Assembly (NCBI RefSeq): GCF_030064675.1
Contig: NZ_CP116413.1
Span: 3,938,001 to 4,002,000, forward strand
Source: Crossiella sp. CA-258035
GTDB lineage: Bacteria > Actinomycetota > Actinomycetes > Mycobacteriales > Pseudonocardiaceae
DNA length: 64,000 nt
Reading direction: 5' to 3'
Position numbers and translations under genes: made by a program. Below are positions 4,012 through 20,049 of the stretch, piece after piece; position 1 is the stretch's first letter, and the number at the start of each line of letters is the position of its first letter. The notes under the pieces were generated by a model. It had not been told where the DNA came from, ran no database searches, and saw only the letters and a program-made list of their open reading frames with translations.

Positions 4012-4043
4012 GTCAGCGGCTCAGGCGGTGTGTAGCGGGGCAC

Positions 4044-4217: not shown

Positions 4218-4297
4218 CTAGGTCCCCGTGCCACATGGAGATCAACCGAGCCAGTATCGGGCCACGGGGCTCCCGCCGCCCGGATAGGGTTTCCGCC

Positions 4298-5260: not shown

Positions 5261-5847
5261 CCCAGGAGGGCCAGCAGCTGCTGGATCTGGGCCGTGCGCG
5301 ACTTCACGATCCGGTCCGCCAGCTCCTTCACCTGCGGGTTGCTGCCATCCCGCAACACGTTGCGCGCCATCTCCACCGCCCCGTGCTGGTGCCCGGTCAG
5401 CACGTTCACCACGTCCCGGTCGAACTTGCCCCCGCTGGTCCTGGCCAGCGCGTCGATCACCTCCTTGGAGGTCGCGGGCATGCCGCCGTGGTGGGCGTGC
5501 AGGTCCGGGTTGGTGTCCACTGTGGTCGGTCGGCCCCAGGACCGCAGCCAGCCGGTCATGGTCTCCGCCTCGGCGAGCTGGGTGGCCTCGACGGCGGCGG
5601 CCAGGTCCTTGATCTCCTTGCGGGTGGCCTTGTCCTTGGCCAGCTTGGCGATCTGCACGGCCTGTCCGTGGTGCGGGAGCATCATCTGCAGGAACATCAC
5701 GTCCGCGTCGTTGAAGTTCGCGGCGGCCGTGGCCGTGGGAGGCGGCGCGGACGGTGAAGGCGGTGCGGCGACAGGGTTTGGCGGGGTGCTCGCGCAGCCG
5801 ACGAGCAGCGCGGCGGCGAGCACGGCGGCGAGGAGGGCTCGGTTCAC
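5254..5847 (-). CDS. DUF305 lipoprotein
   Basis: 197 residues. Begins (GTG, 5847) with VNRALLAAVLAAALLVGCAS, a lipoprotein signal with a lipobox ending at Cys, followed by a Pro/Ala/Thr-rich linker. The rest is a DUF305 domain: paired His motifs MLPHHGQAV, HAHHGG and GHQHGAVEMA in a helical ferritin-like bundle. DUF305 proteins are extracytoplasmic, frequently linked to copper handling, and the His pairs fit metal binding, but the exact role is unproven. A GAAAGG motif lies upstream of the GTG. It overlaps the 3' end of the preceding convergent gene. Confidence 0.85.
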   Translation of the reverse strand: MNRALLAAVLAAALLVGCASTPPNPVAAPPSPSAPPPTATAAANFNDADVMFLQMMLPHHGQAVQIAKLAKDKATRKEIKDLAAAVEATQLAEAETMTGWLRSWGRPTTVDTNPDLHAHHGGMPATSKEVIDALARTSGGKFDRDVVNVLTGHQHGAVEMARNVLRDGSNPQVKELADRIVKSRTAQIQQLLALLGQ

Positions 5848-5865
5848 GGTGGTTGCCTTTCGGAC

Positions 5866-5903
5866 ACCGGCCCGCGCCCCCGGCGGCTGGGGCGCGAGCC
5901 GGT
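5866..5903 (-). terminator. Rho-independent-like hairpin after the AA10 gene
   Basis: Near-perfect inverted repeat with 15-nt arms (ACCGGCCCGCGCCCC at 5866-5880 and GGGGCGCGAGCCGGT at 5889-5903, one mismatch) around an 8-nt loop. It starts 6 bp downstream of the AA10 stop codon and separates that gene from the DUF305 gene on the same strand. No U-tract, as is usual in actinobacteria. Confidence 0.7.
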
Positions 5904-5908
5904 AGTGG

Positions 5909-6640
5909 TCAGACCTGTTGCCACAGGGCGGGGGTGTTCGGGGGTTCCCAGCCGGGCAGCGCGGTGTGCGCCAGGGTGCAGCGGAACGTGCTGCCGTTGT
6001 AGGTGACCTGGCTGCCGACCTGGTAGGCGGTGCCCGAGGCCCAGGTGCCGCCGGGCGGGGGAGTGCTGGTCGTGGTCGGCGTGGTGGTCTTGGTGGTCGG
6101 GCTGGTGGTGGGGGTGCCACCGCCGCCGATCTGCAGGTCCACGCAGGCGTAGAAGGCCATCGGGGTGTCGCCGATGTTCCAGATCGCCAGCAGCTTCTGC
6201 CTGCCGGTCGCGCCGCCCAGGTTCACCGTGTGCGAGACGGTGGGCGGTGGCTGCACGTTGCCGCCGTCGATCAGCGCGACCCGCTGGCCGTTGAGGTAGT
6301 ACTCGTAGTCGCGGGTGCGGTGCCGGGCGGTGAAGGTCCAGGTGAAGTTCACCGTGCCGCCGACCGCGGTGGCCTTCCAGCCCTTGCTGTCGTCGTCGAG
6401 GTCGGCGAACGGCGCGTTGCCGCCACTGCAACTGCGCAGCCCCTTGGGCCCCTCCACGCTCTGCGGCTCGTACTTGATCGGCCCGCAGGGCACGGTGCCC
6501 TGCGCGCACTGGGCCTGCCTGCTGGGCGGGGAGGAGATGTAGCCGTGCGCGAACGCTGGGCTCGCCGGCATCACCACCAGCAGGAAGGGGGTGATGCCGA
6601 GGGCGGCCACGGCCATGGTGAACAGGCGTCTGAGAGTCAT
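5909..6640 (-). CDS. Lytic polysaccharide monooxygenase AA10 with C-terminal CBM5/12
   Basis: 243 residues, secreted. A signal peptide (1-31, ending ASPAFA) exposes His32 (HGYISSP), the N-terminal ligand of the copper histidine brace; the second ligand is His107 in FTARHRTRDY, and the axial aromatic lies in MAFYACVD. The AA10 domain ends near residue 171, followed by a Thr/Pro linker and a CBM5/12 chitin-binding module (WASGTAYQVGSQVTYNG then PGWEPP). AA10 enzymes cleave chitin or cellulose oxidatively outside the cell. The CBM type favours chitin, and this agrees with a DasR-type site upstream. Ribosome site AGGGAG precedes the ATG. Confidence 0.93.
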   Translation of the reverse strand: MTLRRLFTMAVAALGITPFLLVVMPASPAFAHGYISSPPSRQAQCAQGTVPCGPIKYEPQSVEGPKGLRSCSGGNAPFADLDDDSKGWKATAVGGTVNFTWTFTARHRTRDYEYYLNGQRVALIDGGNVQPPPTVSHTVNLGGATGRQKLLAIWNIGDTPMAFYACVDLQIGGGGTPTTSPTTKTTTPTTTSTPPPGGTWASGTAYQVGSQVTYNGSTFRCTLAHTALPGWEPPNTPALWQQV

Positions 6641-6860
6641 GGGTCAGCTCCCTGCCGGGGTCGTCCCGGCGGCTGCGCCCGACGTCGTGCCCCGTCGCAC
6701 GCGATCAACAGGTGCCTGCGCCGGGCAGGGCCGGCGCTGCGGCGCGGGAGGCGCGGACACGCCGCCACCTCGCTCCGCTCACGCGCGTCACGTCGGCGAC
6801 CGGCGGGCCGGCTCCGTGGCACACGGACGAGGCGGCGGGTCCGAATGTCACACAGGGTAA

Positions 6861-6876
6861 GGTGGTCTAGACCATA
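6861..6876 (-). promoter_or_regulatory. DasR-type operator (dre-like site)
   Basis: GGTGGTCTAGACCATA contains the perfect 12-bp palindrome TGGTCTAGACCA (6863-6874), the core of the DasR responsive element described in Streptomyces (consensus close to A-C/G-TGGTCTAGACCA-G/C-T). DasR represses chitin and N-acetylglucosamine genes. The site lies 220 bp upstream of the AA10 start codon and just beyond the stop of the MFS gene, so it most likely serves the AA10 promoter. The 220-bp GC-rich leader between site and gene holds no other recognisable feature. Confidence 0.75.
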
Positions 6877-6896
6877 AGGTACCCGGGTTGTTCATG

Positions 6897-8078
6897 TCAA
6901 TGAACAGCCGCGGCGAACGCGGCCGAGCGGCGCACCACGAGCAGCGCGATGAGTCCGCAGACCGCCGCCGTGCCCACCGCCAGCGGCAGCGCGCCCTGGG
7001 CGAGGAAGAACCCGCCGAGCCCGGCGCCCGCCGCGATGCCGACCTGGAAGGCCACGATGTACACGCTGGAAGCCAGGTCCTGCCGGGTCGCCGTGGCGCG
7101 CAGCACCGCCGCCTGCAACACCACGCCGATCGCGCCGGCCGGCGCCGCCCACAGCACGACCACCGCGCTGCTGAGCAGTCCCGAGCCCGGCCCGAGGGTC
7201 AGCAGCGCCAGCATGCAGAGCGCCAGACCGCCGGCCACGAACAGGCCGGTGGCCCGGGGATGGCTGTCCAGCGTTCGCCCGATCAGCACCAGGCCGAGCA
7301 GACCCGCTGCGCCGTAAGCGAAGAGCAGCGCCGCGGTCGCCGGTCCGGTGAGGTGGGCGTAGTCGGCGATGATCGCGGTGATGTAGGTGTAGGCGGTGAA
7401 GTGGCCCAGCACCACGAGCACCGTGGTCAGGTTCACCGCGGCCAGCGACCGGTCGGCCAGCACCTGCCGGAGCGCGGAAAGTCCTTGTCCTGGCGTGGCA
7501 TGCTCCGCGGGCATCGGCTCGACCGTGGCGCGGATGGCCACCGCGGACAGCAACGCGATGACGGCCAGCACGACCACGGTGGGCCGCCAGCCCAGGGTCG
7601 CGCCGAGCCAGGAGCTCAGGGGTAGTCCGAACAGCAGGGCCAGTGAGTTCCCGGCGAAGACCACCGCGGTGGCCCGCCCGGCCCGGTCCGGACCCAGCAG
7701 GCGGGCGGCCATCGGCGCGACCACCGACCAGAACACCCCGTGGCTCACCGCGGAGACCAGCCGGGCGGCCACCGCGACGCCGTAGCTGGGCGCGAGGGCC
7801 AGCAGCAGGTTGGACAGCGCGATCGCGACCACCGTGATCAGGGCCGTGGTCCGGCGGTCCCAGCGGGCGGTGAGCACCACCAGCGGCATCACGGTGATCG
7901 CGACCACCACCGCGTAGCCGGTCATCAGCAGGCCGATCGCCGAGTCAGACGCTTTCAGACCCGCCGCGAGCTGCGGTAACAGGGCCACCGGCAGGTTCTC
8001 CGAGGTGACCGAGATGAAGCAGGCGGTGCTCAGCGCCACCAGGGCCATACCCGTTCGAGAGCTTGTCGCCACGCGCAT
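6897..8078 (-). CDS. MFS transporter, DHA-type exporter
   Basis: 393 residues from the ATG at 8078. Major facilitator with about 12 hydrophobic segments in the cytoplasmic membrane. The loop-2 pattern (RWDRRTTALIT) and the TM4 segment APSYGVAVAARLVSA are typical of the AraJ/DHA1 group of sugar or drug exporters. An in-frame ATG at 8093 would add five residues that coincide with a palindromic operator, so the inner start is chosen. Divergent from a LacI-type regulator with the shared operator in between, which implies that the regulator controls this transporter. Substrate is unknown. Confidence 0.82.
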   Translation of the reverse strand: MRVATSSRTGMALVALSTACFISVTSENLPVALLPQLAAGLKASDSAIGLLMTGYAVVVAITVMPLVVLTARWDRRTTALITVVAIALSNLLLALAPSYGVAVAARLVSAVSHGVFWSVVAPMAARLLGPDRAGRATAVVFAGNSLALLFGLPLSSWLGATLGWRPTVVVLAVIALLSAVAIRATVEPMPAEHATPGQGLSALRQVLADRSLAAVNLTTVLVVLGHFTAYTYITAIIADYAHLTGPATAALLFAYGAAGLLGLVLIGRTLDSHPRATGLFVAGGLALCMLALLTLGPGSGLLSSAVVVLWAAPAGAIGVVLQAAVLRATATRQDLASSVYIVAFQVGIAAGAGLGGFFLAQGALPLAVGTAAVCGLIALLVVRRSAAFAAAVH

Positions 8079-8094
8079 TGTGTAACGATACACA
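8079..8094. promoter_or_regulatory. Palindromic operator between MFS and LacI-type genes
   Basis: TGTGTAACGATACACA is an almost perfect 16-bp palindrome (only the central positions deviate) directly abutting the MFS start codon and 14 bp before the LacI-type ATG. Its position overlaps the likely start points of both genes, as expected for an operator bound by the adjacent LacI-family protein. Confidence 0.65.
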
Positions 8095-8108
8095 GATAGG
8101 CTGTGGGC

Positions 8109-9149
8109 ATGTCCAGTCCCGGATCACCGCGCGTCACCATGGCGGCGGTGGCGCGCCGCGCCGGTGTCTCGCCGATGACGGTGTCCTACTGCTACAGCCA
8201 GCCGGACCGGGTCGCCCCGGACACGCTGCGCCGGGTCCGCGAGGCCGCCGCCGAACTGGGCTACCAGGGACCGGACCCGACCGCGCGGTCGTTGCGCAAG
8301 CGGCACAACGACGCGATCGGGGTGGTGCTCGGCGAGCACCTCGCCTACGCCTTCGAGGATCCGCAGGCCCGCCGGTTCCTGACCGGGGTGGCCGAGGTGT
8401 GCCGCGAGCGCGGCAGCGGCCTGAACCTGATCCCGACCACCGGTGCGGACCAGGACGTCGAGCGGGTGCGCTCGGCCGCGGTCGACGGCTACATCGTGTG
8501 GACCACGGTCGAGGACGACCCGGTGCTGGAGGTGGTGCGCGGCCTGGGCAAACCGGTCGCCATCCACGGCGGCCCGGCGGTGCCCGGCGTCCAGGTGGTC
8601 GGCATCGACAACCGCGCCTCCGCCAGGGATATCGCCGCGCGCACCTTCGCCGGAGCCCAGCGCCCGGCCGTGCTCAGCTTCCCCTTCGACCGGGAACGCA
8701 GGCCACGGCTGGAAACCGGGCCGGACGCCGACCAGGTGCCGTTCCCGGTCACCCGCGAACGCCTCCAGGGCGTCTACGACCACTGCGCGCAGGCGGGTGT
8801 CGATCCCCGTGGCCTGCCGGTGGCCGTGGTGGCCCGCAACGACCGCGAGGAAGCCGCCGCCATGGCCGCCCTGCTCTTCGACTTCCGCACGCCGGACGCG
8901 GTGGTCGCGATGAGCGACCAGCTCGCCTTCGCGGTGCTCGACACCGCCCGCGCCCGCGGCCTCCGGGTGCCGGAGGACCTCGCGGTCTCCGGCTGGGACG
9001 ACGGCCCGGATGCCGAACGCGCCGGCCTGACCACCATCGCCCAGTCGCTGCTGGACCAGGGCAGGACCTGCGCGCTCATCGCGCTCGGCGACCGGGCGCC
9101 GGGCGGCAGCGCCGCGTGGACCACCCGGGTGCGCTCGAGCACCCGGTGA
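8109..9149 (+). CDS. LacI-family transcriptional regulator
   Basis: About 346 residues. N-terminal LacI helix-turn-helix (MAAVARRAGVSPMTVSYCY) and hinge region, then a periplasmic-binding-protein-like effector domain with the sugar-binding-type segments IGVVLGEHL and SGWDDGPDAERAGLTTI near the C-terminus. Cytoplasmic repressor, dimeric in the family. The ATG at 8109 is taken over a GTG at 8103. No Shine-Dalgarno is visible, so it may be leaderless. Divergent from the MFS gene, whose start abuts a 16-bp palindrome. Effector is unknown. Confidence 0.88.
   Translation: MSSPGSPRVTMAAVARRAGVSPMTVSYCYSQPDRVAPDTLRRVREAAAELGYQGPDPTARSLRKRHNDAIGVVLGEHLAYAFEDPQARRFLTGVAEVCRERGSGLNLIPTTGADQDVERVRSAAVDGYIVWTTVEDDPVLEVVRGLGKPVAIHGGPAVPGVQVVGIDNRASARDIAARTFAGAQRPAVLSFPFDRERRPRLETGPDADQVPFPVTRERLQGVYDHCAQAGVDPRGLPVAVVARNDREEAAAMAALLFDFRTPDAVVAMSDQLAFAVLDTARARGLRVPEDLAVSGWDDGPDAERAGLTTIAQSLLDQGRTCALIALGDRAPGGSAAWTTRVRSSTR
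9125..9146 (+). terminator. Hairpin overlapping the end of the LacI-type gene
   Basis: CCGGGTGC (9125-9132) and GCACCCGG (9139-9146) form an 8-bp stem with a 6-nt loop across the last codons of the regulator gene. It is compact and GC-rich and could end transcription before the esterase-like gene, which starts 34 bp later with its own AGGAGG. Confidence 0.4.
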
Positions 9150-9183
9150 TCTTCGGTACCCTCCGGTGTCAGGAGGTCACCGA

Positions 9184-10485
9184 ATGTCACAGGATGCCCA
9201 GGCCGAGCTGATCACCGCCTGGCTGGCCGAGCACGCCATCCCGCTGCGCACCGTCGAGCCCGGCAACGGTGTGGACGACCTGAAGCCGCTGGCCGAGGTG
9301 CTGGACGGGGTGCGCGTGGTCGGGCTGGGGGAGGCCACGCACGGCAGCAGGGAGTTCTTCACGCTCAAGCACCGGCTGGTCGAGTTCCTGGTGACCGAGC
9401 TGGGTTTCACCACCTTCGCCATCGAGGCCGGCTGGTCGGCCTGCCGCGCGGTGGACGACTACGTGGTGCACGGCACCGGAACCGCCGAGCTGGCCCTGCG
9501 CCAGGTCGGCTTCTGGACCTGGTACACCGAGGAAGTGCTGGCCCTGGTCGAATGGCTGCGCGCGCACAACACGGACCTGCCACTGGAGCAGCGGGTGCGC
9601 TTCCGCGGCGTCGATCCGGTGCTGGAGAAGGCGGGCGTCGAGGCCATCGGCGGCTATCTGTCCACAGTGGACACCGAGCGGGCGGCGGCGTTCCGGGCCG
9701 CGGCCAAGGCACTGCGCCCGGACGTCACCAAGATCAGCGTCGGCGGCGTGCTGCGCGCGGCGTTCCGGCACCTGTGGCGGCGGGTGCCGGGAGTGCGGGC
9801 CGCGGCCGAGCACAACGAGGTGCTCGCGGCCAGGGAGGTGGTGCGCGAGACGGTGACCTGGCTGGCCGGGCACCCGGCGCAGGACCCCGCCTGGCACGAG
9901 GCGCACTGGCACGCCTGGGCGGTGGACCGGGCCGCGGAGCTGCGCACCCTGCCCACCCTCGGCCAGGCGGGCGGTCACCTGCGCGACCGGATGATGGGCG
10001 CGGCGGTGAACCGCATCCTGGAGGAGCAGCCCGACGGCCGGGTGATGTTGTGGGCGCACAACGGACACCTCTCCGCCGCCACCCGCTCCAGCAAGGAGGC
10101 CGCGCTCGGCGCGGAGCTGCGGGACCGGCTCGGCGACGGCTACTACGCGCTGGCGCTGGTGGCCAACGAGGGCGGCTTCCAGGCCATCCAGATGGGCGGC
10201 ACCGAGCTGGCCGAGTTCGTCCTGGACCCGGCCGAGCCCGGCACCCTGGAATGGCAGCTGGCCAAGGTCGGCGGCGACCACCTGGTGGACCTGCGGCACG
10301 CGCGGCCGGACCCGGTGGCCAGGGAATGGCTGGCGGGCAAGCACAAGATGCGCGGCTACGGCTCGGTGGTCGGGTTCTGGAAGACGATGAAGAAGGAGTC
10401 GCTGACCTTCCGGCTGGGCGCGGAGTACGACGGCGTCGCCTACCTGGACCGCACCACTCGCGCCCAGCCGCTGAAACCGGGCTGA
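9184..10485 (+). CDS. Erythromycin-esterase family protein
   Basis: 433 residues. Member of the EreA/EreB-like superfamily (also called succinoglycan-biosynthesis/Ere-like), which includes macrolide lactone esterases. Characteristic segments are VGLGEATHGSREFF near residue 45 with the active-site His, FAIEAGWSACRAVDDYV near residue 80, and WAHNGHLS near residue 290. An AGGAGG sits 7 bp before the ATG at 9184; the longer GTG start at 9166 would overlap that site and is rejected. Actinomycete members are often not true resistance enzymes, so macrolide hydrolysis is only a possibility. Confidence 0.82.
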   Translation: MSQDAQAELITAWLAEHAIPLRTVEPGNGVDDLKPLAEVLDGVRVVGLGEATHGSREFFTLKHRLVEFLVTELGFTTFAIEAGWSACRAVDDYVVHGTGTAELALRQVGFWTWYTEEVLALVEWLRAHNTDLPLEQRVRFRGVDPVLEKAGVEAIGGYLSTVDTERAAAFRAAAKALRPDVTKISVGGVLRAAFRHLWRRVPGVRAAAEHNEVLAAREVVRETVTWLAGHPAQDPAWHEAHWHAWAVDRAAELRTLPTLGQAGGHLRDRMMGAAVNRILEEQPDGRVMLWAHNGHLSAATRSSKEAALGAELRDRLGDGYYALALVANEGGFQAIQMGGTELAEFVLDPAEPGTLEWQLAKVGGDHLVDLRHARPDPVAREWLAGKHKMRGYGSVVGFWKTMKKESLTFRLGAEYDGVAYLDRTTRAQPLKPG

Positions 10486-10486
10486 C

Positions 10487-12340
10487 TCAGCCCGCGCGCT
10501 GGATCAGCGTCGGATCCTCCAGCTCGGCCAGCGTCGCCGCGTACTCCTTGACCAGCTCGTGCAGCACGTACCGGCCGGGCGCGGACTCGGTGAGCAAGTG
10601 GTTGTCGTACAACAGTTCCAGCCCGCGCCGGGCCGCCGTGGCGGTCAACCCGGCCAGCGCCGCCGAGGTCGGCGGGTCGACCTCGACACCCGAGCACAGG
10701 CCGAGGCAGCGGAACAGCCGCTGGGTCTCCACCGGCAGGCCCTGGTAGGACAGCTCGAACGCGGCGGTGAGCGTGCGGTTCTCCGCGTGCAGCTCGCTCA
10801 GCCGGGTCCGCGCGGAGCTGAGCAGGTCCACCAGGTAGCGCTCGGTCCAGCGCGGGTGGTGCCGCAACCGACCGGCCAGCAACGTGATCGCCAGCGGCAG
10901 ACCGCCGCACAGCGCCACCAGCTCGGTGACCGCCGCCGGGTCCACCGGCTGCTCGCGCGGACCGGCCAGCCGCTGGAACAGCCGGGCGGCCTGTTCCAGC
11001 GGCAGCGGGTTCAGCTCCAGCGACCGCACGCCCTCCAGCGCGCTCAGCCGCCGTCTGCTGGTGATCAGCACCCGGCACCGGCCGGGTCCCGGCAGCAGCG
11101 GCCGGACCTGCTCGTGCCCGGCGGCGTCGTCCAGGATGAGCAGCAACCGCTTGTCCCGCAAGCGTTCCCGCCACAGCGCGGCGCGGGCGTGCTCGGTCTC
11201 CGGCAGCGCGGCGGCCGGCACACCGACCGCGAGCAGCAGCGCGGCCAGCGCCTGGTACGGCGGCAGCGGCGGCTGCGCGGCGGCGAAGGCGTTGAGGCGC
11301 AGGAAGATCCGGCCGTCCGGGTAGTCGGTGGCGAGCAGGTGCGCGGCCTGCACGGCCAGGGTGGTCTTGCCGATCCCGGGCATCCCGTCCACCACGTGCA
11401 CCACCGCGGCCACCGACGGTTCGGTGAGCCGCCGCAGCTCGTCCTCCCTTCCGCTGCAGGACAACGAATCCGCGGGTAGCTGCTCCACGGTCACCGCGGG
11501 CGCGAGCACCACCGGCGGACCGGCCAGCCGCGGCGGCGCGGACAGTTCCGGATCCCTGGTCAGGATGCGCTGGTGCAGCCCGCGCATGGCCGGGCCAGGG
11601 TCGATGCCCAGCTGTTCGGCCAGCACCGCGCGGGCGTCCTGGAACACCCCGAGCGCCTCGGCCTGCCTGCCCGAGCGGTACAGCGCGAGCATCAGCAGCT
11701 CCCGCAACCGTTCCCGCAGCGGGTGCCGGGTCACCAGTGCGGTCAGCTCGGCCACCGCCGTGCGGTGCTCGCCGCGGTCCAGCGCCAGCGCCGCGGACAG
11801 CTCCTGGGCCAGCAGGTGGCACTCGCGCAACCGCAGCCGGTGCGCGTGCAGGTACGCGCTGTCCAGGCCGCTGAACGGCTCCCCGCGCCAGCGCCGCAGC
11901 GCCGAGCCCACCGACTCGGCGGCCGCCCGCCACTGCCCGGCCCGCTGGTGCTCCTGGGCCGCGGCCACCTCCTGCTCGAAGACCAGCGCGTCCAGCTGGT
12001 CGGGCTCCCCGCGCAGCAGGTAGCCGGCCTCGGTGCGCACCACCACCGCGTCCCGGTCATCGGTGGCCCCGGGCGGCCGCAGCGCGCGGCGCAGCCTGCT
12101 GATGTTGGTCTGCACCGTGTTCCGCGCGCCCTGCGGCGGGTTGTCCGCCCACACCGCCTCGATCAGCGCCTCCACCGGCACCGGCTGGTTCATTCGAGTG
12201 AGCAGAACAGCCAGCACTGCCTGTTGCCGCGCCCAGCCCAGCTCGATCCGCACCGGACCGCGGCGCGCGGCCAGCGCCCCGAGTACCTCGCAGTAAAGCC
12301 TGTCGTCGTGTTTGAGCACGTCAAACCCCCAATTAGGCAT
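10487..12340 (-). CDS. SARP/AfsR-type activator with NB-ARC domain
   Basis: About 617 residues. Order: OmpR-type winged helix (around residues 10-85, with ARQQAVLAVLL and ISRLRRAL), bacterial transcriptional activator domain (about 95-245, FSGLDSAYLHAHRLRL), then an NB-ARC ATPase with Walker A DGMPGIGKTTLA, Walker B RLLLILDDAA, and the GLPLAI motif, ending in a winged helix (HELVKEYA). The C-terminal TPR region found in AfsR is absent. SARP proteins are cluster-situated activators of secondary metabolism in actinomycetes. It is divergent from the lanthipeptide precursor gene and is the likely pathway activator. The ATG at 12340 is chosen; GTG at about 12319 is an alternative. Confidence 0.88.
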   Translation of the reverse strand: MPNWGFDVLKHDDRLYCEVLGALAARRGPVRIELGWARQQAVLAVLLTRMNQPVPVEALIEAVWADNPPQGARNTVQTNISRLRRALRPPGATDDRDAVVVRTEAGYLLRGEPDQLDALVFEQEVAAAQEHQRAGQWRAAAESVGSALRRWRGEPFSGLDSAYLHAHRLRLRECHLLAQELSAALALDRGEHRTAVAELTALVTRHPLRERLRELLMLALYRSGRQAEALGVFQDARAVLAEQLGIDPGPAMRGLHQRILTRDPELSAPPRLAGPPVVLAPAVTVEQLPADSLSCSGREDELRRLTEPSVAAVVHVVDGMPGIGKTTLAVQAAHLLATDYPDGRIFLRLNAFAAAQPPLPPYQALAALLLAVGVPAAALPETEHARAALWRERLRDKRLLLILDDAAGHEQVRPLLPGPGRCRVLITSRRRLSALEGVRSLELNPLPLEQAARLFQRLAGPREQPVDPAAVTELVALCGGLPLAITLLAGRLRHHPRWTERYLVDLLSSARTRLSELHAENRTLTAAFELSYQGLPVETQRLFRCLGLCSGVEVDPPTSAALAGLTATAARRGLELLYDNHLLTESAPGRYVLHELVKEYAATLAELEDPTLIQRAG

Positions 12341-12400
12341 CGGAGAAGGACACCTTAACCCGCGGACGGTGTGTTCGGAACTACTCACAGTAAGAGCTTG

Positions 12401-12434
12401 TTGACATGCGACTGCAATCCTGTGACAGCGCTGT
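12401..12434 (+). promoter_or_regulatory. lanA: Candidate lanA promoter with internal palindrome
   Basis: TTGACA at 12401-12406 is a good -35 hexamer; no strong -10 follows at the usual distance, which is common for promoters that need an activator. A perfect 10-bp palindrome ACAGCGCTGT lies at 12425-12434. The element is between the divergent SARP gene and the precursor gene. No clear SARP-type direct repeat was found. Confidence 0.4.
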
Positions 12435-12510
12435 GTACGCGGCCCCGCCTAGGGTCCGAAGTGAGCGCGAGAAAATCGCGCAGCACAATCACAGAAAGGT
12501 GAAATGTCAA

Positions 12511-12690
12511 ATGGACGCTTTTGATCTGGACGCCAGGGTCAGCACTCCGGCGGCGAGCAACGGCCAGGCGCAGCCGCTGTCGATTACCAGTGTGATCACC
12601 CGCCTGGCGTGCACCAGGACCCCGCTCTGCTCCGGCTTCACCTGCCGCTGCACCCAGGGCGCGTGCACCGCCGGCTGCCCCAAGCGGTAA
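12511..12690 (+). CDS. lanA: Class I lanthipeptide precursor peptide
   Basis: 59 residues. The leader starts MDAFDLDARVS, containing the FDLD version of the F-N/D-L-D box that binds LanB and LanC in nisin and epidermin leaders. The C-terminal part from ITSV onward is about 35 residues with six Cys and nine Ser/Thr (C-rich blocks LACTRTPLC, SGFTCRC, TQGAC, TAGC, ending PKR). ITSV at the likely core start recalls nisin and planosporicin. The ring-like spacings T-x3-C, T-x2-C, S-x3-C, T-x2-C, T-x3-C, T-x2-C could give up to six lanthionine rings. The AAAGGTGA motif 10 bp upstream supports the ATG at 12511. The cleavage site is not certain: no protease gene is present. Not a sequence I recognise as a described lantibiotic. 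Confidence 0.88.
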   Translation: MDAFDLDARVSTPAASNGQAQPLSITSVITRLACTRTPLCSGFTCRCTQGACTAGCPKR

Positions 12691-12714
12691 GTACCCGCAG
12701 CTAGTCGGGCTGAA

Positions 12715-12755
12715 GGCGGGTGCTGCCGTGTGTCGACGACACGGCAGCACCCGCC
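12715..12755 (+). terminator. Strong hairpin between lanA and lanC (attenuator-like)
   Basis: Perfect 17-bp stem (arms 12715-12731 and 12739-12755) with a 7-nt loop GTCGACG, 25 bp after the precursor stop and 41 bp before lanC. Lanthipeptide operons commonly carry such a partial terminator or RNA stabiliser here, giving far more precursor transcript than enzyme transcript. Confidence 0.85.
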
Positions 12756-12795
12756 GCTCAACCTACCGCATCAGTGCAGAGGAACAGGGGTTGTC

Positions 12796-14163
12796 ATGCG
12801 CGCAGAAACAGTGGCCAGGGAATCCGCGACAGCCTGGCACGGAGTAGTCCCCGCGGCGCTTGCGGCCAAAGCCCGCGAAGTGGCCTGGGAGGTCGCGCGG
12901 AGAACCGCGGATTCCGCCGAGGTCATCGATCATGTCATGCGATTCACCGAGCAGACGATGCATCCGATGGAATGGTACTTACCCAGCTTCGGGTATGGCC
13001 ACGCCGGAATCGCACTACTCCATGTGCACGCCGCGGCCGTTGCCCCCAATGAGGTAGAGAGCGCGCGTTCCCTCTCGGCGGGGTTCTCTTTCATCCGCGA
13101 GGCGGTGGCGGGCACCCAGGTCCAACCGCTATTGGCGCCGGGCGTGTTCTCCGGCACCGGCGGCCTCGGGCTGTGCGTGGCGGGCTGTGTCGAAGCCGAA
13201 CCCCGGTTCGCGCCCAGCCTTCGCCGCCTGCACGAGCAGTTCGCCGCCCAGGTCGCCGAACTGGACCTGCCCATGGCCGAACGCGAGGTCAGCGACTCCG
13301 ACTACGACCTGATCACCGGCGCCGCGGGCACCCTGGCCTACCTCTGCTCGATCCCGGACCCCGACGAGTCGCTGCGCGCCGCCGCCCAGCGCCTGCTGGA
13401 CTACCTCATCTGGCTCAGCGAGCCACCCCGCGACCTCACCATCACCCGCCGCTGGCTGATCTCCCCGGAGCTGTGCGCGCCACTGGGCCGCGACCCCAGG
13501 GAGTTCCCCGGCGGCTACCTCAACCTCGGCCTCTCCCACGGCATCCCCGGCGCGGTCGCCGCACTGGCCGTGGCCCGGCTGCGCGGGCACCGGCGGCCCG
13601 GACAGGTGGCGGCCATCCGGCGAATGGTGGACTGGCTCCTCGATGTCCGGCGCGCGGACGAGCACGGTCCGGTGTGGGCCACCGAGATCCCGGTGGCCGG
13701 CTCCGGCGAGGAGGTCCGGCCGAACCAGCCCAACGACCAGATCGGCTGGTGCTACGGCACCGCCGGGGTCGCGGTGTCCCTGCTCGCCGCGAGCGAGGCG
13801 CTGGGCGACGCCGAGCTGCGGGCCGCGGCCTTCGAGGCGTTCGAGGGCGTGCTGCGGCGCAGCGAGGAGCGGCCCGCGCTCTCGCCCACCTTCTGCCACG
13901 GCGTGGCCGGGGTGCTGGCCATCTGCCTGGAGTTCGCCGCCGCGGGCAGCGAAGCGGCCCGCGAGCACACCCCGCGGCTGCTCGCCGAGCTGCTCGCGCA
14001 CGCCGATCCCGCGCACCCGCTGGTCTTCCGCGACCAGGAGGAGCCGGGGCTGTTCGTGGACTGCCCAGGACTGCTCACCGGCTCGACCGGGGTGGCGCTG
14101 ACCCTGCTCGCCGCGATCAGCCCGGCCCGCCCCACCTGGCTGACCGCGTTCCTGGCACGGTGA
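12796..14163 (+). CDS. lanC: Lanthipeptide cyclase LanC
   Basis: 455 residues, slightly longer than nisin NisC. Zinc-dependent cyclase that adds Cys thiols to dehydrated residues to form (methyl)lanthionine rings. The alpha-barrel signature motifs are seen: GYGHAGIALL and GTGGLGL in the first half, SHGIPGAVAAL, and the zinc ligands Cys319 (GWCYGTAG) and Cys367-His368 (TFCHGVAG), with a C-terminal GLLTGSTGVALTLL. The ATG at 12796 follows a GAGGAACAGGGG purine-rich stretch. It lies between lanA and lanB and ends 2 bp before the lanB ATG, so translation is probably coupled. Confidence 0.95.
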   Translation: MRAETVARESATAWHGVVPAALAAKAREVAWEVARRTADSAEVIDHVMRFTEQTMHPMEWYLPSFGYGHAGIALLHVHAAAVAPNEVESARSLSAGFSFIREAVAGTQVQPLLAPGVFSGTGGLGLCVAGCVEAEPRFAPSLRRLHEQFAAQVAELDLPMAEREVSDSDYDLITGAAGTLAYLCSIPDPDESLRAAAQRLLDYLIWLSEPPRDLTITRRWLISPELCAPLGRDPREFPGGYLNLGLSHGIPGAVAALAVARLRGHRRPGQVAAIRRMVDWLLDVRRADEHGPVWATEIPVAGSGEEVRPNQPNDQIGWCYGTAGVAVSLLAASEALGDAELRAAAFEAFEGVLRRSEERPALSPTFCHGVAGVLAICLEFAAAGSEAAREHTPRLLAELLAHADPAHPLVFRDQEEPGLFVDCPGLLTGSTGVALTLLAAISPARPTWLTAFLAR

Positions 14164-14165
14164 GC

Positions 14166-17100
14166 ATGACCCGCTACGAACCCGCCGACTTCTTCCTGCT
14201 GCGCGCCCCAGCGTTGCCGGCCAGGGTCTTCCAGGACCTGCTCGCCATCGACGATCCGGACCAGGCCCGCGCCGAAGTGCACGGCCGCCTGCGCGCACTG
14301 GCCACGCGACCGGAGGTGCGCCGGGCGCTCGCGGTGGCCAGCGGCGACCTGGTCGACGCCCTGGACCGCCCGGCCCCCAACGGAAAGCGGGCCCGGCGGC
14401 TGCACTCCCGGCTGCTGCGCTACCTCACCAGGATGACCACCCGGCCCACCCCCTTCGGCGCGTTCTCCGGTGTCGCGGTCGGCGAGTTCGGCGCGCAGAC
14501 CACCGCGCGGCTGGGCGTACCGGCCTTGCGGGACAACCGGATCCGCGCGGACATGGCCTGGCTGCTGACCGTGGTCAAGCAGCTGGAGGAGGACGAGGCG
14601 CTGCGCCCGCACCTGCGGGTGGTGCTCAATTCCAGCGTGCACCACAGCGGCGACCGCCTGGTGCTGCCCTACGCCGACATCTACGGCCACAACGACAACC
14701 GCGCGGTCCGGGTGCGGGCCACCACCGCCGCGCTCGCGGTGACCAGGCTGACCGCCACCCCGATCCCGTACGGGCAGCTGCTCACCGCGCTGGCCGAGGA
14801 GTTCCCCGGCGTCGACCCGGCCAGGGTCGCCGGGCTGGTGGACGAGCTGCGCACGCTGAACTTCCTGACCAGCGACCTGCGCCCGCCGCTGACCGTGGCC
14901 CACCCGGAGGCCCACCTGGCCAAGGCACTGGCCGGGATCGAGGCCGCGGCCGGCACCGCCGAGGCGCTGCGCGAGGTCATCGACCTGGCCCACCACGCGG
15001 CCACCAGCGCGGACCCCGCCACGCTGGCCGCGCTGACCGCCGCCCAGCGCGCGCTCGCGCCCGAGCACACCGGCCCGACCTACCAGCTGGACGCCACCCT
15101 CGACCTGCGCGAACCGGGACTCTCCGCCGAGGTCGGCACCGCGGTGGCCGAGGCGGTGGACTGCCTGATGCGCCTGTCCGCCGCGCTGCCAGGGCACAAC
15201 CACCACCTCGCCCAGTACCGGGACGCCTTCACCGAACGCTACGGGCTGCTCGCACTGGTGCCGGTGCTGGAGCTGCTCAGCCCGGAGCACGGCCTGGACG
15301 CGCCACCCACCTACACCGAGCCGCCGCGCACATATCCGTTGCCGCACAACGTCGGCGAGCCCTGGCAGCAGGACTTCGACCGGGTGCTCACCGAGTTCGC
15401 GGTGCAGGCCTGGTGCTCCGGCGAACCCGAGGTCGAGCTGACCGACGAGTGGCTGAACCGCTTCGCCCCACCGGAGGACGCGCCGTCGCTGGCGCTGTAC
15501 CCGGCGCTGGACGTCTACGCCCAGCTCGCCGCCGACCACTCGGCGGGGGAGTGGCGGGCGGTGCTGCGCGAGGAGGGCCTGGCCTTCGGCGGGCGCACCT
15601 CGGGCCGGTTCTTCGACCTGCTCGGCGAGGCGGCGGTGGACCGGCTGCGCGGCTACGCCCGCCGCGAGGAGGAGCTCAGCCCCGAGGTGGTCTACGCCGA
15701 GCTGTGCTACCTGCCCAACCACGGCCGGGCGGCCAACGTGGCGCTGCGGCCGCTGCTGCGCGGCTACGAGGTCCCGGTCAACACCGCGCCCTCGGTGCCG
15801 CCGGAGCGGGTGATCGACCTGGCCGACCTGTGCGTCGGCGCCACCGAGGACCGCCTGTTCCTGTGGTCCAAGCGGCTGGGCAAGCAGGTGGTGGTCTCGC
15901 AGAACCACATGCTCAGCCCGCACGTGGCTCCCAACGTGGCCCGGTTCGTGCTGGAGGTCTCCAACGACGGCTACGTCATGCCCTGCGGGTTCCGCTGGGG
16001 ACCACTGGACACGATGCCCTTCCTGCCCAGGGTCACCCGAGGCAAGGTCGTGCTGCGCCCGGCCCAGTGGCGGCTGAACTCATTGCCCGGCAAGGACTTC
16101 GCCGCCGAGGTCCGCGCCTGGCGGGAGCAGTGGCGGGTGCCCAGGCACGTCTACCTGGTGGAGGCGGACAACCGGCTGCTGCTCGACCTGGACCACCCGG
16201 TCTGCCTGGACGAGCTGGCCACCGGGCTCAACCGCGGCCCGGTGACCGTGCACGAGATGCTGCCCGCCTTCGACCAGCAGTGGCTGCGCGACAACGACGG
16301 CGCGGCCTACCTGGAGGAGATCGTGGTCCCGCTGCTGGCCCGCAGCGGCGCGGACACCGCGCGCAGCGAGGTCACGCTGTCCGCGCCGGTGGACACCGAG
16401 GACGCTCCGGCGCGGCTGCACCTGCCCGGCGGTCAGTGGAGCTTCCTCAAGCTGTACACCGGAATGACCCAGCAGGACGAGATCATCAGCACCGGCCTGC
16501 GCGAGCTAGTCGCGGTGCTGGGTGAGCAGGGGCTGATCGACCGCTGGTTCTACATCCGTTACATGGACCCGCGCCCGCACCTGCGACTGCGCTTCCGGGC
16601 CGCGCACCCCGAGGCCGAACCCGCCCTGCTGTGGCAGCTCACCGTGTGGGGCAAGCAGATGGTCGAGCAGGGTCTTGCCTTCGACACCGCGCTCGCGGGC
16701 TATGCCCCGGAGATCGAGCGCTACGGCGGCCCGCTGGTCTACGACACGGTGGAACAGGTCTTCGCCGCCAACAGCGCGGTCACCGCCGACCTGGTTGCCT
16801 TGTTGCACAACGACAGCGACCTGCGCCCCGACTTCGCCGCGATCGCCGCGGTGGACACCCTGTACCGGCAGTGGGGCCTCGAACCGAAGGAACGCATGGA
16901 ACTGCTGCCCGGCAGCGGCGGCGCGGACGCCGACCTCGTGCGCGCCGAGTTCCAGCAGCACCGCGCCTACCTCACCGAACTGCTCGTCCCGTGGGACTTC
17001 CGCCCGCACGAACAGGGCAGACAGCACCACCAGCTGATCGCTGAAGTCCTTGCTGCGCAACGTGAAGCGGTTGCCGCGGCGCAGGCGGCGGTGACCGGCG

Positions 17101-17264
17101 GGCAGCTGTGGGGCACCGAGGCCGGGGTGCTGGGCAGCCTGGCGCACATGCAGATCAACCGGTTGCTGCCGATCGACCTGCGCCGCGAATCGCACCTCTA
17201 CGCGCTGTGGCGGCAGGCTCTGCGCGCCATCGGCGGCCGACCCGCACCGGAGGCCACGGCATGA
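14166..17264 (+). CDS. lanB: Lanthipeptide dehydratase LanB, full length
   Basis: 1032 residues, the size of a complete class I dehydratase. The N-terminal glutamylation domain uses glutamyl-tRNA to activate Ser/Thr (segments RMTTRPTPFGAFSGV near residue 95 and LPNHGRAANVALRP near 515), and the C-terminal elimination (SpaB_C) domain starts near residue 755 with WSFLKLYTGMTQQDEI and contains WFYIRYMDPRPHLRLRF. Both halves are fused, as in NisB and MibB, rather than split as in thiopeptides. An in-frame GTG at 14160 is an alternative start. It overlaps lanT by ATGA. The much longer upstream frame running through lanC is a shadow. Confidence 0.95.
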   Translation: MTRYEPADFFLLRAPALPARVFQDLLAIDDPDQARAEVHGRLRALATRPEVRRALAVASGDLVDALDRPAPNGKRARRLHSRLLRYLTRMTTRPTPFGAFSGVAVGEFGAQTTARLGVPALRDNRIRADMAWLLTVVKQLEEDEALRPHLRVVLNSSVHHSGDRLVLPYADIYGHNDNRAVRVRATTAALAVTRLTATPIPYGQLLTALAEEFPGVDPARVAGLVDELRTLNFLTSDLRPPLTVAHPEAHLAKALAGIEAAAGTAEALREVIDLAHHAATSADPATLAALTAAQRALAPEHTGPTYQLDATLDLREPGLSAEVGTAVAEAVDCLMRLSAALPGHNHHLAQYRDAFTERYGLLALVPVLELLSPEHGLDAPPTYTEPPRTYPLPHNVGEPWQQDFDRVLTEFAVQAWCSGEPEVELTDEWLNRFAPPEDAPSLALYPALDVYAQLAADHSAGEWRAVLREEGLAFGGRTSGRFFDLLGEAAVDRLRGYARREEELSPEVVYAELCYLPNHGRAANVALRPLLRGYEVPVNTAPSVPPERVIDLADLCVGATEDRLFLWSKRLGKQVVVSQNHMLSPHVAPNVARFVLEVSNDGYVMPCGFRWGPLDTMPFLPRVTRGKVVLRPAQWRLNSLPGKDFAAEVRAWREQWRVPRHVYLVEADNRLLLDLDHPVCLDELATGLNRGPVTVHEMLPAFDQQWLRDNDGAAYLEEIVVPLLARSGADTARSEVTLSAPVDTEDAPARLHLPGGQWSFLKLYTGMTQQDEIISTGLRELVAVLGEQGLIDRWFYIRYMDPRPHLRLRFRAAHPEAEPALLWQLTVWGKQMVEQGLAFDTALAGYAPEIERYGGPLVYDTVEQVFAANSAVTADLVALLHNDSDLRPDFAAIAAVDTLYRQWGLEPKERMELLPGSGGADADLVRAEFQQHRAYLTELLVPWDFRPHEQGRQHHQLIAEVLAAQREAVAAAQAAVTGGQLWGTEAGVLGSLAHMQINRLLPIDLRRESHLYALWRQALRAIGGRPAPEATA

Positions 17265-19057
17265 AACCGAACAACCACTGGCTGCGGATCGCCAAGATGC
17301 TCTGGGACCTCAGCCCATTGCGTGTGCTGGCGTTGATCCTGGTCACCGTCGCGGTCTCGGTGGTGCCCGCGATCCAGTTGCAGCTCACCGCCACCGCGGT
17401 GCAGACCGTGGCCGAGGCGATCGCCGCGCGGGGCCAGGGCGACTTCGGTCCCGCGGTGCTCGCGGTCGGCCTGCTCATCCTGGCCGTCTCGGTGGCCGCG
17501 CACCTGCTCGGCGTGTGGCACGGCTACCTGGACTCGGTGCTGCGCCTGCACTTGTCCACCGCGGTCGGCGAGGAGGTGATGCGCAAGGGCACCAGGATGG
17601 AGCTCCAGGACTACGAGGACGCCGACTCCTACGACAAGCTGCAACGCGCCTTCCAGGAGAGCAGCGGCACCCGGATCCACCAGCTGTTCACCGACACCCT
17701 GGCCTTCGCCCGCGAGCTGATCACCATCCTGTCCGTCTCCGCGGTGCTGTTCTCCTGGAACTTCTGGGTCGCGGTGCTCATCCTGATCTCGCCGATCCCG
17801 TCCGCGATCGCGCAGATGTGGTACGGCAAGAAGATGTACGAGATCGAGTACGGCCGGGCCGCCGATCGTCGTCGCCTGTTCTACCTCCAGTACCTGACCA
17901 CCACCGACCACTCCTTCAAGGAGGTCCGCCTCTTCCAGCTGGATGGCCACCTGATCAAGGCCTACCGCGACCAGGTGCAGCGGTTCCTGCGGGTGGACCG
18001 GGACATCACCCGCCGCCAGTCCGTCTCGCTCGGCGTCTTCGGCCTGGTGAGCGTGCTGATCTCGGCCGGAGCGCTGGTGTTCGCGATGCTGGCCACCAAG
18101 GACACCGGGCAGATCGGCGAGCTGGCCGGGTACCTGCAGGCGATCGGCATCGTGCAGGCATCGGGGCACACCCTGCTGGTCGGCGTGGCCAACCTGTTCG
18201 AGAACAAGCTGTTCGTGAGCAACTTGTTCGAGCTGCTCGACCTGCCCGAGCGGCAGATCCGGGGCGGGCAACGGAAGTTCCCGGAGCGGCTGCGCCAGGG
18301 CATCGAGTTCCGCGAGGTCAGCTTCACCTACCCCGGCACCAGCGAACAGGTCCTGGACCGGGTCAGCTTCACCATGCCCGCCGGCAACTGCGTGGCCCTG
18401 GTCGGCCAGAACGGCGCGGGCAAGACCACCCTGGTCAAGCTGCTCACCCGGCTCTACGAGCCCACCAGCGGGGAGATCCTGCTCGACGGCGTGCCGATCC
18501 AGGAGTTCGACCTGGAAGACCTGCGCCGCAACCTCGGCGTCATCTTCCAGGACTACATCCGCTACGAGCTGCCGGTGCGGGACAACATCGGCTTCGGCCA
18601 GATCGAGCACCGCGCCGACACCGACCGGATCCGCCGCGCCGCACAGGCCAGTGGCGCTGACTCCATTGTGGACACTCTCCCAGCAGGCTACGACGCCATG
18701 CTGGGCCGCCACTTCGAGAACGGCCACCAGCTCTCCGGCGGCCAGTGGCAGAAGGTCGCACTGGCCAGGGCGTTCATGCGGGCCGCGCCGATCGTGGTGC
18801 TGGACGAGCCCACCGCCTCCATCGACGCCGAGGCCGAAACCGAGATCTTCCAACGCTTCCGCAGCATCGCCGACACCTCCACCAGCCTGCTGGTGGCTCA
18901 CCGCTTCTCCACCGTCCGGATCGCCGACAAGATCATCGTCATCGAGGGCGGCAAACTCGTCGAACAGGGCACGCACACCGAACTGATGCGCCAGGGCGGC
19001 CACTACGCCTACCTGTTCAACCTCCAGGCCGCCGGATACCAGCCGGAGCACACGTGA
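17261..19057 (+). CDS. lanT: ABC transporter, LanT-like exporter
   Basis: 598 residues: an N-terminal membrane domain with about five to six hydrophobic segments (17-330) and a C-terminal nucleotide-binding domain with Walker A GQNGAGKTTL, signature LSGGQWQKVALARA, Walker B IVVLDEPTAS and the H-loop VAHRFST. Half-transporter that works as a homodimer to export the modified peptide. It lacks the N-terminal C39 peptidase found in class II LanT proteins, so it does not remove the leader itself. Starts inside the lanB stop (ATGA overlap) and its own stop overlaps the GTG of the next gene. Confidence 0.92.
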   Translation: MKPNNHWLRIAKMLWDLSPLRVLALILVTVAVSVVPAIQLQLTATAVQTVAEAIAARGQGDFGPAVLAVGLLILAVSVAAHLLGVWHGYLDSVLRLHLSTAVGEEVMRKGTRMELQDYEDADSYDKLQRAFQESSGTRIHQLFTDTLAFARELITILSVSAVLFSWNFWVAVLILISPIPSAIAQMWYGKKMYEIEYGRAADRRRLFYLQYLTTTDHSFKEVRLFQLDGHLIKAYRDQVQRFLRVDRDITRRQSVSLGVFGLVSVLISAGALVFAMLATKDTGQIGELAGYLQAIGIVQASGHTLLVGVANLFENKLFVSNLFELLDLPERQIRGGQRKFPERLRQGIEFREVSFTYPGTSEQVLDRVSFTMPAGNCVALVGQNGAGKTTLVKLLTRLYEPTSGEILLDGVPIQEFDLEDLRRNLGVIFQDYIRYELPVRDNIGFGQIEHRADTDRIRRAAQASGADSIVDTLPAGYDAMLGRHFENGHQLSGGQWQKVALARAFMRAAPIVVLDEPTASIDAEAETEIFQRFRSIADTSTSLLVAHRFSTVRIADKIIVIEGGKLVEQGTHTELMRQGGHYAYLFNLQAAGYQPEHT

Positions 19058-20049
19058 GAACCTCCATCATCCTGCCGGTGATGCCGGAACAGCCCGACGA
19101 CCTCACCCCCTTCGCCGAGCTCGTCCGCGACACCCCCGCACACCGCCTGTGGCAGGGCCAGTCCCTGGGACTGGAAACCCACCAGGCCTTCGCCTACCTG
19201 GCGGGCCAAGGGTTCCAGCTGCCGGTCGGCACCAGCGTCACCCTCACCGCCCTGCGCCACCCCTACGAAGCCGCCCTGCAAGCCCGCTCCCTGGCCCGCC
19301 TCACCGGCCATCCCATGGTGCTCGGCATCGGCGCGGGCACCCCGGAACTCGTGGAGTCCTTGCACGGCAAGGCATACCCGAGCCCGCTGACCGCGCTGGC
19401 CGACTACCTCACCATCCTGCGCGGCCTGCTGGCCGGCGATCCCGTGCTCCACCAAGGCCGCCAGTACCAGATGCACGGCGGCCTGCCCCCCTTCGAGCAC
19501 CCGCCGGTGGAGCTCGGCCTCGGCGTCCTGCGCCCCGCCGCCGCCCGCCTGGCAGGTGAGCTGGCCGACTCCGCGATCACCTGGATGACCCCGCCGGACT
19601 ACCTGCGCACCGTGCTCCGCCCGGAAATCGAGGCCGCCGCGGCACAAGCCGGTCGCCCCGCGCCCAGGATCGTCACGGTGGTGCACGTCGCGGTCCGCCG
19701 ACCGGGCCGCAACCCGCACCAGGTGGCGCTCACCGCCGCCCGGGAACACCTGGCCGCCCCGCACTACACCGACATGCTCCGCCGCGCGGGCCTGCGCGTG
19801 CACCCCATGCAGCCGGGCCTGAGCGCGCGGGCGCTGGTCGACGGCGGCGTGGTGCTCACCGGCACCCTGTCCGAGATCGCGGCCGGGGTGCGGCGCTACC
19901 ACGAGGCCGGGGCAGACGAGGTGGTACTGAACACCGCGGGCGTGCGCATGCTGGAAGGCCGGGAGGCCGCACTCAGGGACCTGCGGGCGATTCTGGCGGA
20001 GGTGACCACGTCGGATTCTCGCCAGCCAACCGACGCCGGGCTTGCCTAG
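19054..20049 (+). CDS. Luciferase-like F420-type oxidoreductase, candidate LanJ reductase
   Basis: 331 residues. Luciferase-like monooxygenase fold (LLM), the TIM-barrel family that uses F420 or FMN. Visible family segments are TSVTLTALRHPYEAALQARSL near the N-terminus, MVLGIGAGTPEL, LADYLTILRGLLAG with VLHQGRQYQM, and LGVLRPAAARLAGELADSAITW. Its GTG overlaps the lanT stop (GTGA), so it belongs to the lanthipeptide operon. In other lanthipeptide clusters LLM-type F420H2-dependent enzymes (LanJC group, for example in lexapeptide biosynthesis) reduce dehydroalanine to D-Ala. That role is inferred here from context; another tailoring oxidation is possible. Confidence 0.75.
   Translation: MRTSIILPVMPEQPDDLTPFAELVRDTPAHRLWQGQSLGLETHQAFAYLAGQGFQLPVGTSVTLTALRHPYEAALQARSLARLTGHPMVLGIGAGTPELVESLHGKAYPSPLTALADYLTILRGLLAGDPVLHQGRQYQMHGGLPPFEHPPVELGLGVLRPAAARLAGELADSAITWMTPPDYLRTVLRPEIEAAAAQAGRPAPRIVTVVHVAVRRPGRNPHQVALTAAREHLAAPHYTDMLRRAGLRVHPMQPGLSARALVDGGVVLTGTLSEIAAGVRRYHEAGADEVVLNTAGVRMLEGREAALRDLRAILAEVTTSDSRQPTDAGLA

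What the first reader, a model, noticed from the sequence alone, without database searches (positions are those of the whole stretch)
12340..20049. Uncharacterised class I lanthipeptide cluster: SARP-lanA-lanC-lanB-lanT-LLM
A complete minimal class I system is read directly: a 59-residue precursor with a FDLD leader box, LanC zinc ligands, fused LanB and an exporter, all on one strand with start/stop overlaps. The precursor core (about 35 residues, six Cys, nine Ser/Thr, beginning ITSV and ending CPKR) does not match any lantibiotic I can recall, and the predicted ring pattern (T/S-x3-C or T-x2-C repeated six times, with an interleaved S17/T20-C21/C23 pair) is dense, like nisin rings D/E. No LanP protease and no LanFEG immunity genes are in the operon.
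Basis: partly seen in the sequence, partly recalled or inferred. Interest (0 to 1): 0.88.

Follow-up and report, generated by a model that had tools for sequence, protein, structure and literature searches.

The report
Class I lanthipeptide cluster with LanJC
An actinobacterium of the genus Crossiella carries an intact set of genes for a nisin-type ring-forming peptide, with an extra F420-dependent reductase that probably turns one or more serine- or threonine-derived residues into D-amino acids, a step reported so far (in the papers we could read) only for other classes of these peptides.

Summary
Window 12511-20049 encodes lanA-lanC-lanB-lanT-LLM, with a SARP regulator on the opposite strand just upstream. 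The precursor hits NCBIfam NF038155 (FDLD class I lanthipeptide). LanB is full length and LanC keeps its Cys-Cys-His zinc ligands. The core peptide is uncharacterised as far as could be searched, but it has relatives: ten clusters in five Crossiella genomes (two in this genome) and five in Streptomyces.

It belongs to the F420-dependent TIGR03564 family of LxmJ/Cao12. Its closest relatives sit almost wholly in RiPP clusters, mostly class V lanthipeptides. All class I copies form one branch (98/98) beside class V copies. I read it as a LanJC that reduces Dha/Dhb to D-Ala/D-Abu; in 2024 LanJ-made D-residues were reported only in classes II and V.

New anatomy: a 19-bp operator found exactly twice in the 9.2-Mb genome, before its two lanA genes; a lanA-lanC hairpin, also exactly twice, conserved to Streptomyces with compensatory changes; an erythromycin-esterase-like gene beside the cluster here and in Streptomyces. 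Missing LanP is normal for actinobacteria. New variant of a known kind; chemistry, cleavage site, rings and activity are untested.

The parts
9184..10485 (+). Ere-like hydrolase (PF05139), possible accessory gene of the cluster
   Evidence: PF05139 209.6 bits. Next to the cluster in four Crossiella genomes, immediately after the LLM in five Streptomyces class I clusters, after lanT in L086. Background: 4 of 29 other Pseudonocardiaceae genomes at E<=1e-30, at most 43% identity. GEATHG and WAHNGH motifs present; no obvious signal peptide.
10487..12340 (-). SARP-type regulator: Trans_reg_C, BTAD, NB-ARC (start ATG 12340 or GTG 12319); lacks the TPR part of the longer copies in other clusters
   Evidence: Pfam BTAD 141.7 bits, NB-ARC 55 bits; divergent from lanA in the Crossiella clusters with enough flanking sequence.
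12423..12441 (+). Probable SARP operator TGACAGCGCTGTGTACGCG (11-bp-spaced direct repeat TGTGACA-gcgc-TGTGTAC)
   Evidence: Aligned upstream of all ten Crossiella lanA genes; with up to 2 mismatches exactly 2 sites in the 9.17-Mb genome, one before each lanA; control pattern 0.
12511..12690 (+). lanA: 59-aa precursor, FDLD leader plus six-Cys core
   Evidence: (NF038155, 31.2 bits, cut-off 20).
12715..12755 (+). Intergenic hairpin lanA/lanC (17-bp stem, 7-nt loop), probable attenuator or processing/stabilising element
   Evidence: Fold z -4.0; two copies in the genome, both lanA-lanC; 5 pairs with changes on both sides, covariation score reached by 0/500 shuffles, across Crossiella and Streptomyces; no Rfam family.
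12796..14163 (+). lanC cyclase; zinc ligands Cys in WCYG (residues 318-321) and Cys-His in FCHG (366-369); His in GLSHG
   Evidence: PF05147 139.6 bits; aligned with MadC 8byk and NisC 2g02/2g0d.
14160..17264 (+). lanB, full-length dehydratase (glutamylation plus elimination domains)
   Evidence: phmmer to MibB 5ehk 1.8e-85, MadB 9g04 8.8e-84, NisB 4wd9 2.8e-39 with RPTPFG, IRYMD..HLRLR and SLAHM..NR motifs aligned.
17261..19057 (+). lanT, ABC exporter, 598 aa, no peptidase domain
   Evidence: ABC_tran 118.5 bits.
19054..20049 (+). LLM = predicted LanJC-type F420H2-dependent dehydroamino-acid reductase
   Evidence: Best NCBIfam TIGR03564 139.8 bits, below that model's 234-bit cut-off; same family as LxmJ and Cao12 (PMC8068269); present in all ten Crossiella clusters; single branch 98/98 with the Streptomyces class I copies, next to class V copies; genome has F420 cofD.

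Best explanation
The locus makes one class I lanthipeptide. A cluster-specific SARP binds the direct-repeat operator upstream of lanA and turns the operon on. The hairpin after lanA lets more precursor be made than enzymes. LanB, holding the FDLD leader, dehydrates Ser/Thr in the core with Glu-tRNA; LanC joins six Cys into (methyl)lanthionine rings. The LLM acts as a LanJC: with F420H2 it reduces one or more dehydro-residues not used for rings to D-Ala or D-Abu. LanT exports the peptide; a protease encoded elsewhere removes the leader near P-L-S-I. Shown by sequence: genes, catalytic motifs, conservation, operator, hairpin, LLM phylogeny. Inferred: the D-residue and its position, ring topology, cleavage site, regulation and antibacterial use.
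For: Class I set and motifs. LLM: TIGR03564/MSMEG_4879 family like Cao12 and LxmJ, the latter shown to reduce Dha28 to D-Ala28 (PMC8068269); LanJC also inferred in class II birimositide (PMC7268733). LLM relatives outside class I lie mostly in class V clusters with APH- and HopA1-type genes (10 of 15 loci; 17 of 40 Streptomyces loci by automatic label) and one beside LanM genes. All 17 class I LLMs (two from remnants) form one branch, 98/98. LLM kept in 10 of 10 Crossiella clusters and 5 Streptomyces clusters, translationally coupled to lanT here. F420 pathway gene present. Operator and hairpin unique to the two lan operons genome-wide; hairpin covaries.
Against: No chemistry is known. LLM scores below the TIGR03564 cut-off and is about 44-57% identical to class V copies, so its substrate or reaction could differ; I had no LxmJ sequence to compare directly. 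Related LLMs also occur in a YcaO/split-LanB cluster and next to a radical SAM gene, so family membership does not fix the reaction. No single unpaired Ser/Thr is obviously the target; LxmJ did not reduce Dhb at one tested position.
Confidence: 0.72

Rival explanations
1. The LLM modifies the peptide in another way: an oxidation, or reduction of an N-terminal keto group formed after leader removal (like the lactyl cap of epilancins), not Dha/Dhb reduction inside the chain.
For: LLM enzymes catalyse varied reactions; the conserved P-x-S-I Ser could become the N-terminal residue and, once dehydrated, lose ammonia to a 2-oxopropionyl group. Related LLMs occur in non-lanthipeptide RiPP contexts.
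Against: Closest relatives are class V LanJC-type enzymes and TIGR03564 is an F420 family; in the usual order of events the leader is removed last, outside the cell.
Confidence: 0.15
2. An ordinary class I lanthipeptide whose LLM is a passenger with a housekeeping redox function.
For: Close LanB relatives in genera g34, g16 and g21 (44-48%) have no LLM nearby.
Against: LLM is translationally coupled, kept in 10 of 10 Crossiella and 5 Streptomyces clusters, and groups phylogenetically by lanthipeptide class.
Confidence: 0.08
3. Add-on to the main reading: the Ere-like gene is a functional part, a cytosolic hydrolase that removes the leader (the missing LanP) or gives self-protection.
For: Adjacent in four Crossiella genomes and directly after the LLM in Streptomyces; catalytic motifs kept; from memory, Ere proteins belong to the TraB/TIKI superfamily, which contains proteases. 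Graspetide loci also carry an Ere homologue of unclear role (PMC8939145).
Against: Not next to the type A3 clusters or the G016 cluster; no signal peptide seen, while class I leaders are usually cut outside; the L196 and L197 copies have no lan genes nearby.
Confidence: 0.2

Closest known systems
FDLD family class I lanthipeptides (NCBIfam NF038155), e.g. maddinglicin MadA/MadB/MadC
   Same: FDLD leader box, full-length LanB, stand-alone zinc LanC; MadB and MadC are among the nearest solved structures; the MadA leader reads LDDFDLDVKVKA (PMC12241602)
   Different: Different core; added LLM, SARP and operator; actinobacterial
Lexapeptide/cacaoidin, class V lanthipeptides (LxmJ, Cao12)
   Same: F420-dependent TIGR03564-type reductase next to the peptide genes
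   Different: Rings here are made by LanB and LanC, not by APH/HopA1-type class V enzymes; no CypD-like decarboxylase
Birimositide (class II, LanJC)
   Same: Luciferase-like reductase in the cluster, Ser to D-Ala inferred by MS (PMC7268733)
   Different: LanM enzyme and two-component peptides
Nisin/gallidermin family (TIGR03731)
   Same: LanB/LanC logic, ITS start, T-P-x-C ring motif, interleaved C-terminal pair
   Different: Precursor does not hit TIGR03731; no LanFEG, LanP or LanRK in the operon
Unnamed Streptomyces clusters found here (L143, L144, L145, L149, L150)
   Same: lanA-hairpin-lanC-lanB-lanT-LLM-ere; LanB 52-53%, LanT 60%, LLM 56-60% identical
   Different: Cores differ; no SARP seen next to lanA in the fetched stretch

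Membership tests
Class I lanthipeptide system | LanB with glutamylation and elimination domains | tested here: met
   PF04738 530 bits and PF14028 171 bits in one ORF; motifs aligned with MibB/MadB
Class I lanthipeptide system | Stand-alone LanC with Cys-Cys-His zinc site | tested here: met
Class I lanthipeptide system | Precursor with F-N/D-L-D leader box and Ser/Thr/Cys-rich core | tested here: met
   NF038155 above cut-off
Class I lanthipeptide system | Dehydrated, thioether-bridged product | not testable with these tools
   Needs expression and MS
LanJC reductases | Luciferase-like, F420-type family (PF00296/TIGR03564) | tested here: met
   104 bits PF00296 (over cut-off); TIGR03564 best NCBIfam hit at 139.8 bits but under its 234-bit cut-off
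LanJC reductases | Encoded in a lanthipeptide cluster and related to class V/II LanJC-type enzymes | tested here: met
LanJC reductases | Reduces Dha/Dhb to D-Ala/D-Abu | not testable with these tools
   Biochemical test needed
Nisin/gallidermin family (TIGR03731) | Precursor matches the family model | tested here: not met
   No TIGR03731 hit for this lanA, whereas the nisin-like L182 peptide does hit
Class V lanthipeptide system | APH-type kinase plus HopA1-type lyase in the cluster | tested here: not met
   Neither family beside this cluster

The most novel reading that the evidence does not exclude
A class I lanthipeptide family (Crossiella and Streptomyces) that carries D-amino acids put in by an F420H2-dependent LanJC taken over once from class V-type pathways: the first class I case of this modification, with an Ere-like hydrolase as a new accessory (perhaps leader-removing) enzyme in part of the family.
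Probability: 0.5. Interest if true: 0.62.

Novelty: new variant of a known kind. Interest (0 to 1): 0.5.

Why it matters
D-residues stabilise lanthipeptides and alter activity, and the papers read here place LanJ-made D-residues in classes II and V only (PMC11519912, 2024). A natural class I pathway with a LanJC would show that this step can be joined to LanB/LanC, which is useful for engineering nisin-type antibiotics. The two operons of this genome share a very specific operator, so one regulator could switch on two silent peptides.

Tried and rejected
NF038155 family search over a class sample found only this genome; the tool scored 25 candidates per genome, so this is weak evidence of rarity, and Streptomyces members were found later by another route. 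First idea that class I plus LLM is limited to Crossiella: rejected. G224 weak precursor hit (39%, in-frame TGA): its fetched neighbourhood had no lan genes, dropped. SnoaL, GSHPx and GNAT genes downstream: SnoaL is kept beside A1 clusters of four genomes but not A2, A3 or G016, so not counted as core. Sigma-70 promoter and intrinsic terminator scans gave nothing. Rfam gave nothing. Whether the class I cluster named in the Crossiella antiSMASH paper (PMC9415966) is this one: probably not, since that one is exclusive to strains Cross-1/2 and 91-94% like Amycolatopsis marina. The LLM of L143 was missed by my gene caller and recovered by reading the frame. Structure prediction was not run: sequence families already gave the folds.

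Full report
Observation. lanA is 12511-12690; lanC 12796-14163; lanB 14160-17264; lanT 17261-19057; LLM 19054-20049. The last three junctions overlap by 4 nt. The SARP gene lies outside the span, on the minus strand (10487-12340). The precursor is MDAFDLDARVSTPAASNGQAQPLSITSVITRLACTRTPLCSGFTCRCTQGACTAGCPKR; six Cys and nine Ser/Thr follow from ITSV.

Enzymes. LanB has both Pfam dehydratase parts in one chain and aligns along its length with MadB and largely with MibB. LanC aligns with MadC and NisC, with WCYG, FCHG and GLSHG kept. LanT has no peptidase domain. The precursor hits NF038155, FDLD family class I lanthipeptide, at 31 bits against a cut-off of 20. It does not hit the nisin/gallidermin model.

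Relatives. In 297 Pseudonocardiaceae genomes the precursor is found only in Crossiella, apart from one unsupported weak hit (genus from records L018, L019). There are three core types: A1 (this one, five genomes), A2 (one) and A3 (four, including a second cluster in this genome at 5306892). All ten clusters have an LLM, and the order SARP / lanA / lanC-lanB-lanT-LLM is kept wherever enough sequence is held. Invariant precursor positions include the leader MDAFDLD, T-P-A, P-L-S-I, and in the core Cys34, T37-P38-x-C40-S41, T44-C45-x-C47 and C52-T53. Between A1 orthologues dN/dS is about 0.1-0.3.

Regulation. All ten lanA promoters share TGACAGNGCTGTGTACGCG or a near copy. With two mismatches allowed it occurs exactly twice in the genome, before the two lanA genes, and never as the reversed control. 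The layout TGTGACA-4-TGTGTAC, an 11-bp repeat, is typical of SARP sites (own knowledge); in A3 the unit recurs 22 bp on. The lanA-lanC gap holds a 17-bp-stem hairpin, also at exactly two places in the genome (the third row is one of these sites read on the other strand), folding better than all 200 shuffles. The same hairpin stands in the lanA-lanC gap of Streptomyces clusters; across ten distinct sequences five pairs change on both sides and no shuffle reaches the covariation score (shuffles do not remove relatedness). It is not in Rfam. I take it as the element that sets lanA expression above lanCB, as between structural and enzyme genes of other lantibiotics (inference).

The LLM. Its best NCBIfam model is TIGR03564 (MSMEG_4879 F420 family; 139.8 bits, below the 234-bit cut-off). 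PMC8068269 places Cao12 and LxmJ in that same family, and reports that LxmJ reduces Dha28 to D-Ala28 with F420H2. PMC7268733 named such enzymes LanJC from birimositide. PMC11519912 (2024) states that LanJ-made D-residues are seen mainly in class II and a class V peptide. Outside class I, the nearest LLM homologues sit in class V clusters with APH- and HopA1-type genes, one next to LanM genes and one in a YcaO/split-LanB cluster. In 373 Streptomyces genomes 71 hold a homologue at E<=1e-75. Of 40 loci inspected, 17 were labelled class V, and L143, L144, L145, L149 and L150 carry lanA-lanC-lanB-lanT-LLM-ere; L198 and L199 look like remnants. L182 has a nisin-like precursor beside lanC-lanB-LLM. 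In the tree, the 17 class I copies (remnants included) form one branch, 98/98, and the nisin-like one lies apart, suggesting one main take-over from class V-type pathways and a second one. The root is not fixed, so the direction is an inference. The genome can make F420 (cofD).

Mechanism. Best reading: LanB/LanC ring formation with LanJC reduction of unpaired dehydro-residues. With six rings assigned as T6-C10, T13-C16, S17-C21, T20-C23, T24-C28, T29-C32 (core numbering from ITSV), the spare residues are T2, S3 and T11, plus the conserved Ser just before ITSV if the cut lies upstream. None is proved.

Missing genes and the Ere-like neighbour. Actinobacterial class I clusters typically lack LanP (PMC11672506), and hidden proteases are known (PMC8960859), so its absence is ordinary. 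The Ere-like gene at 9184-10485 is beside the cluster in four Crossiella genomes, elsewhere in G016, and just after the LLM in Streptomyces; only 4 of 29 other family members have a homologue, at most 43% identical. It may be an accessory hydrolase, perhaps leader-removing or protective; this is a lead only.

Verdict. Real, intact, uncharacterised and conserved: a class I lanthipeptide with a predicted LanJC. New variant of a known kind. The chemistry is inference until masses are measured. Limits: supplements and most subscription journals could not be read, and no LxmJ sequence or MIBiG/antiSMASH search was available.

Noticed in passing
G000:C1:5306892-5314467 (L023): Second, paralogous class I cluster in the same genome with its own SARP (1024 aa), operator (duplicated), hairpin and LLM; core region IISRLTCSRTPVCSKTTCKCSQTCTPICTAGCMR.
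   Followed up: yes
L182 (G966:C2), 3583-10211: Streptomyces nisin-like precursor MSDFDLDAKVLADDAPQATPFITSVSLCTPGCVTAAGCTTSVCTQGCHVSK (TIGR03731 44 bits) divergent from lanC-lanB-LLM: a nisin-family cluster with a predicted reductase.
   Followed up: partly
window 37611-41264 (-): Large subtilase (PF00082, 1217 aa) 17 kb from the cluster; S8 is the LanP family, but there is no evidence that it belongs here.
   Followed up: no
L089, L092 (Crossiella): Class V lanthipeptide clusters in two Crossiella genomes with an LLM 52% identical to this one; absent from this genome at E<=1e-40.
   Followed up: partly
L105 (Streptomyces), 3373-4393: Four small ORFs of 50-52 aa in a row near a methyltransferase and an LLM of this family; may be precursor peptides of another RiPP.
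   Followed up: no
window 1952-2725 (-): Thg1-type tRNA-His guanylyltransferase (PF04446, PF14413) in an actinobacterium.
   Followed up: no
L195 (G016), 7763-12512: The G016 Ere-like gene sits beside another SARP gene, far from its lan cluster.
   Followed up: partly
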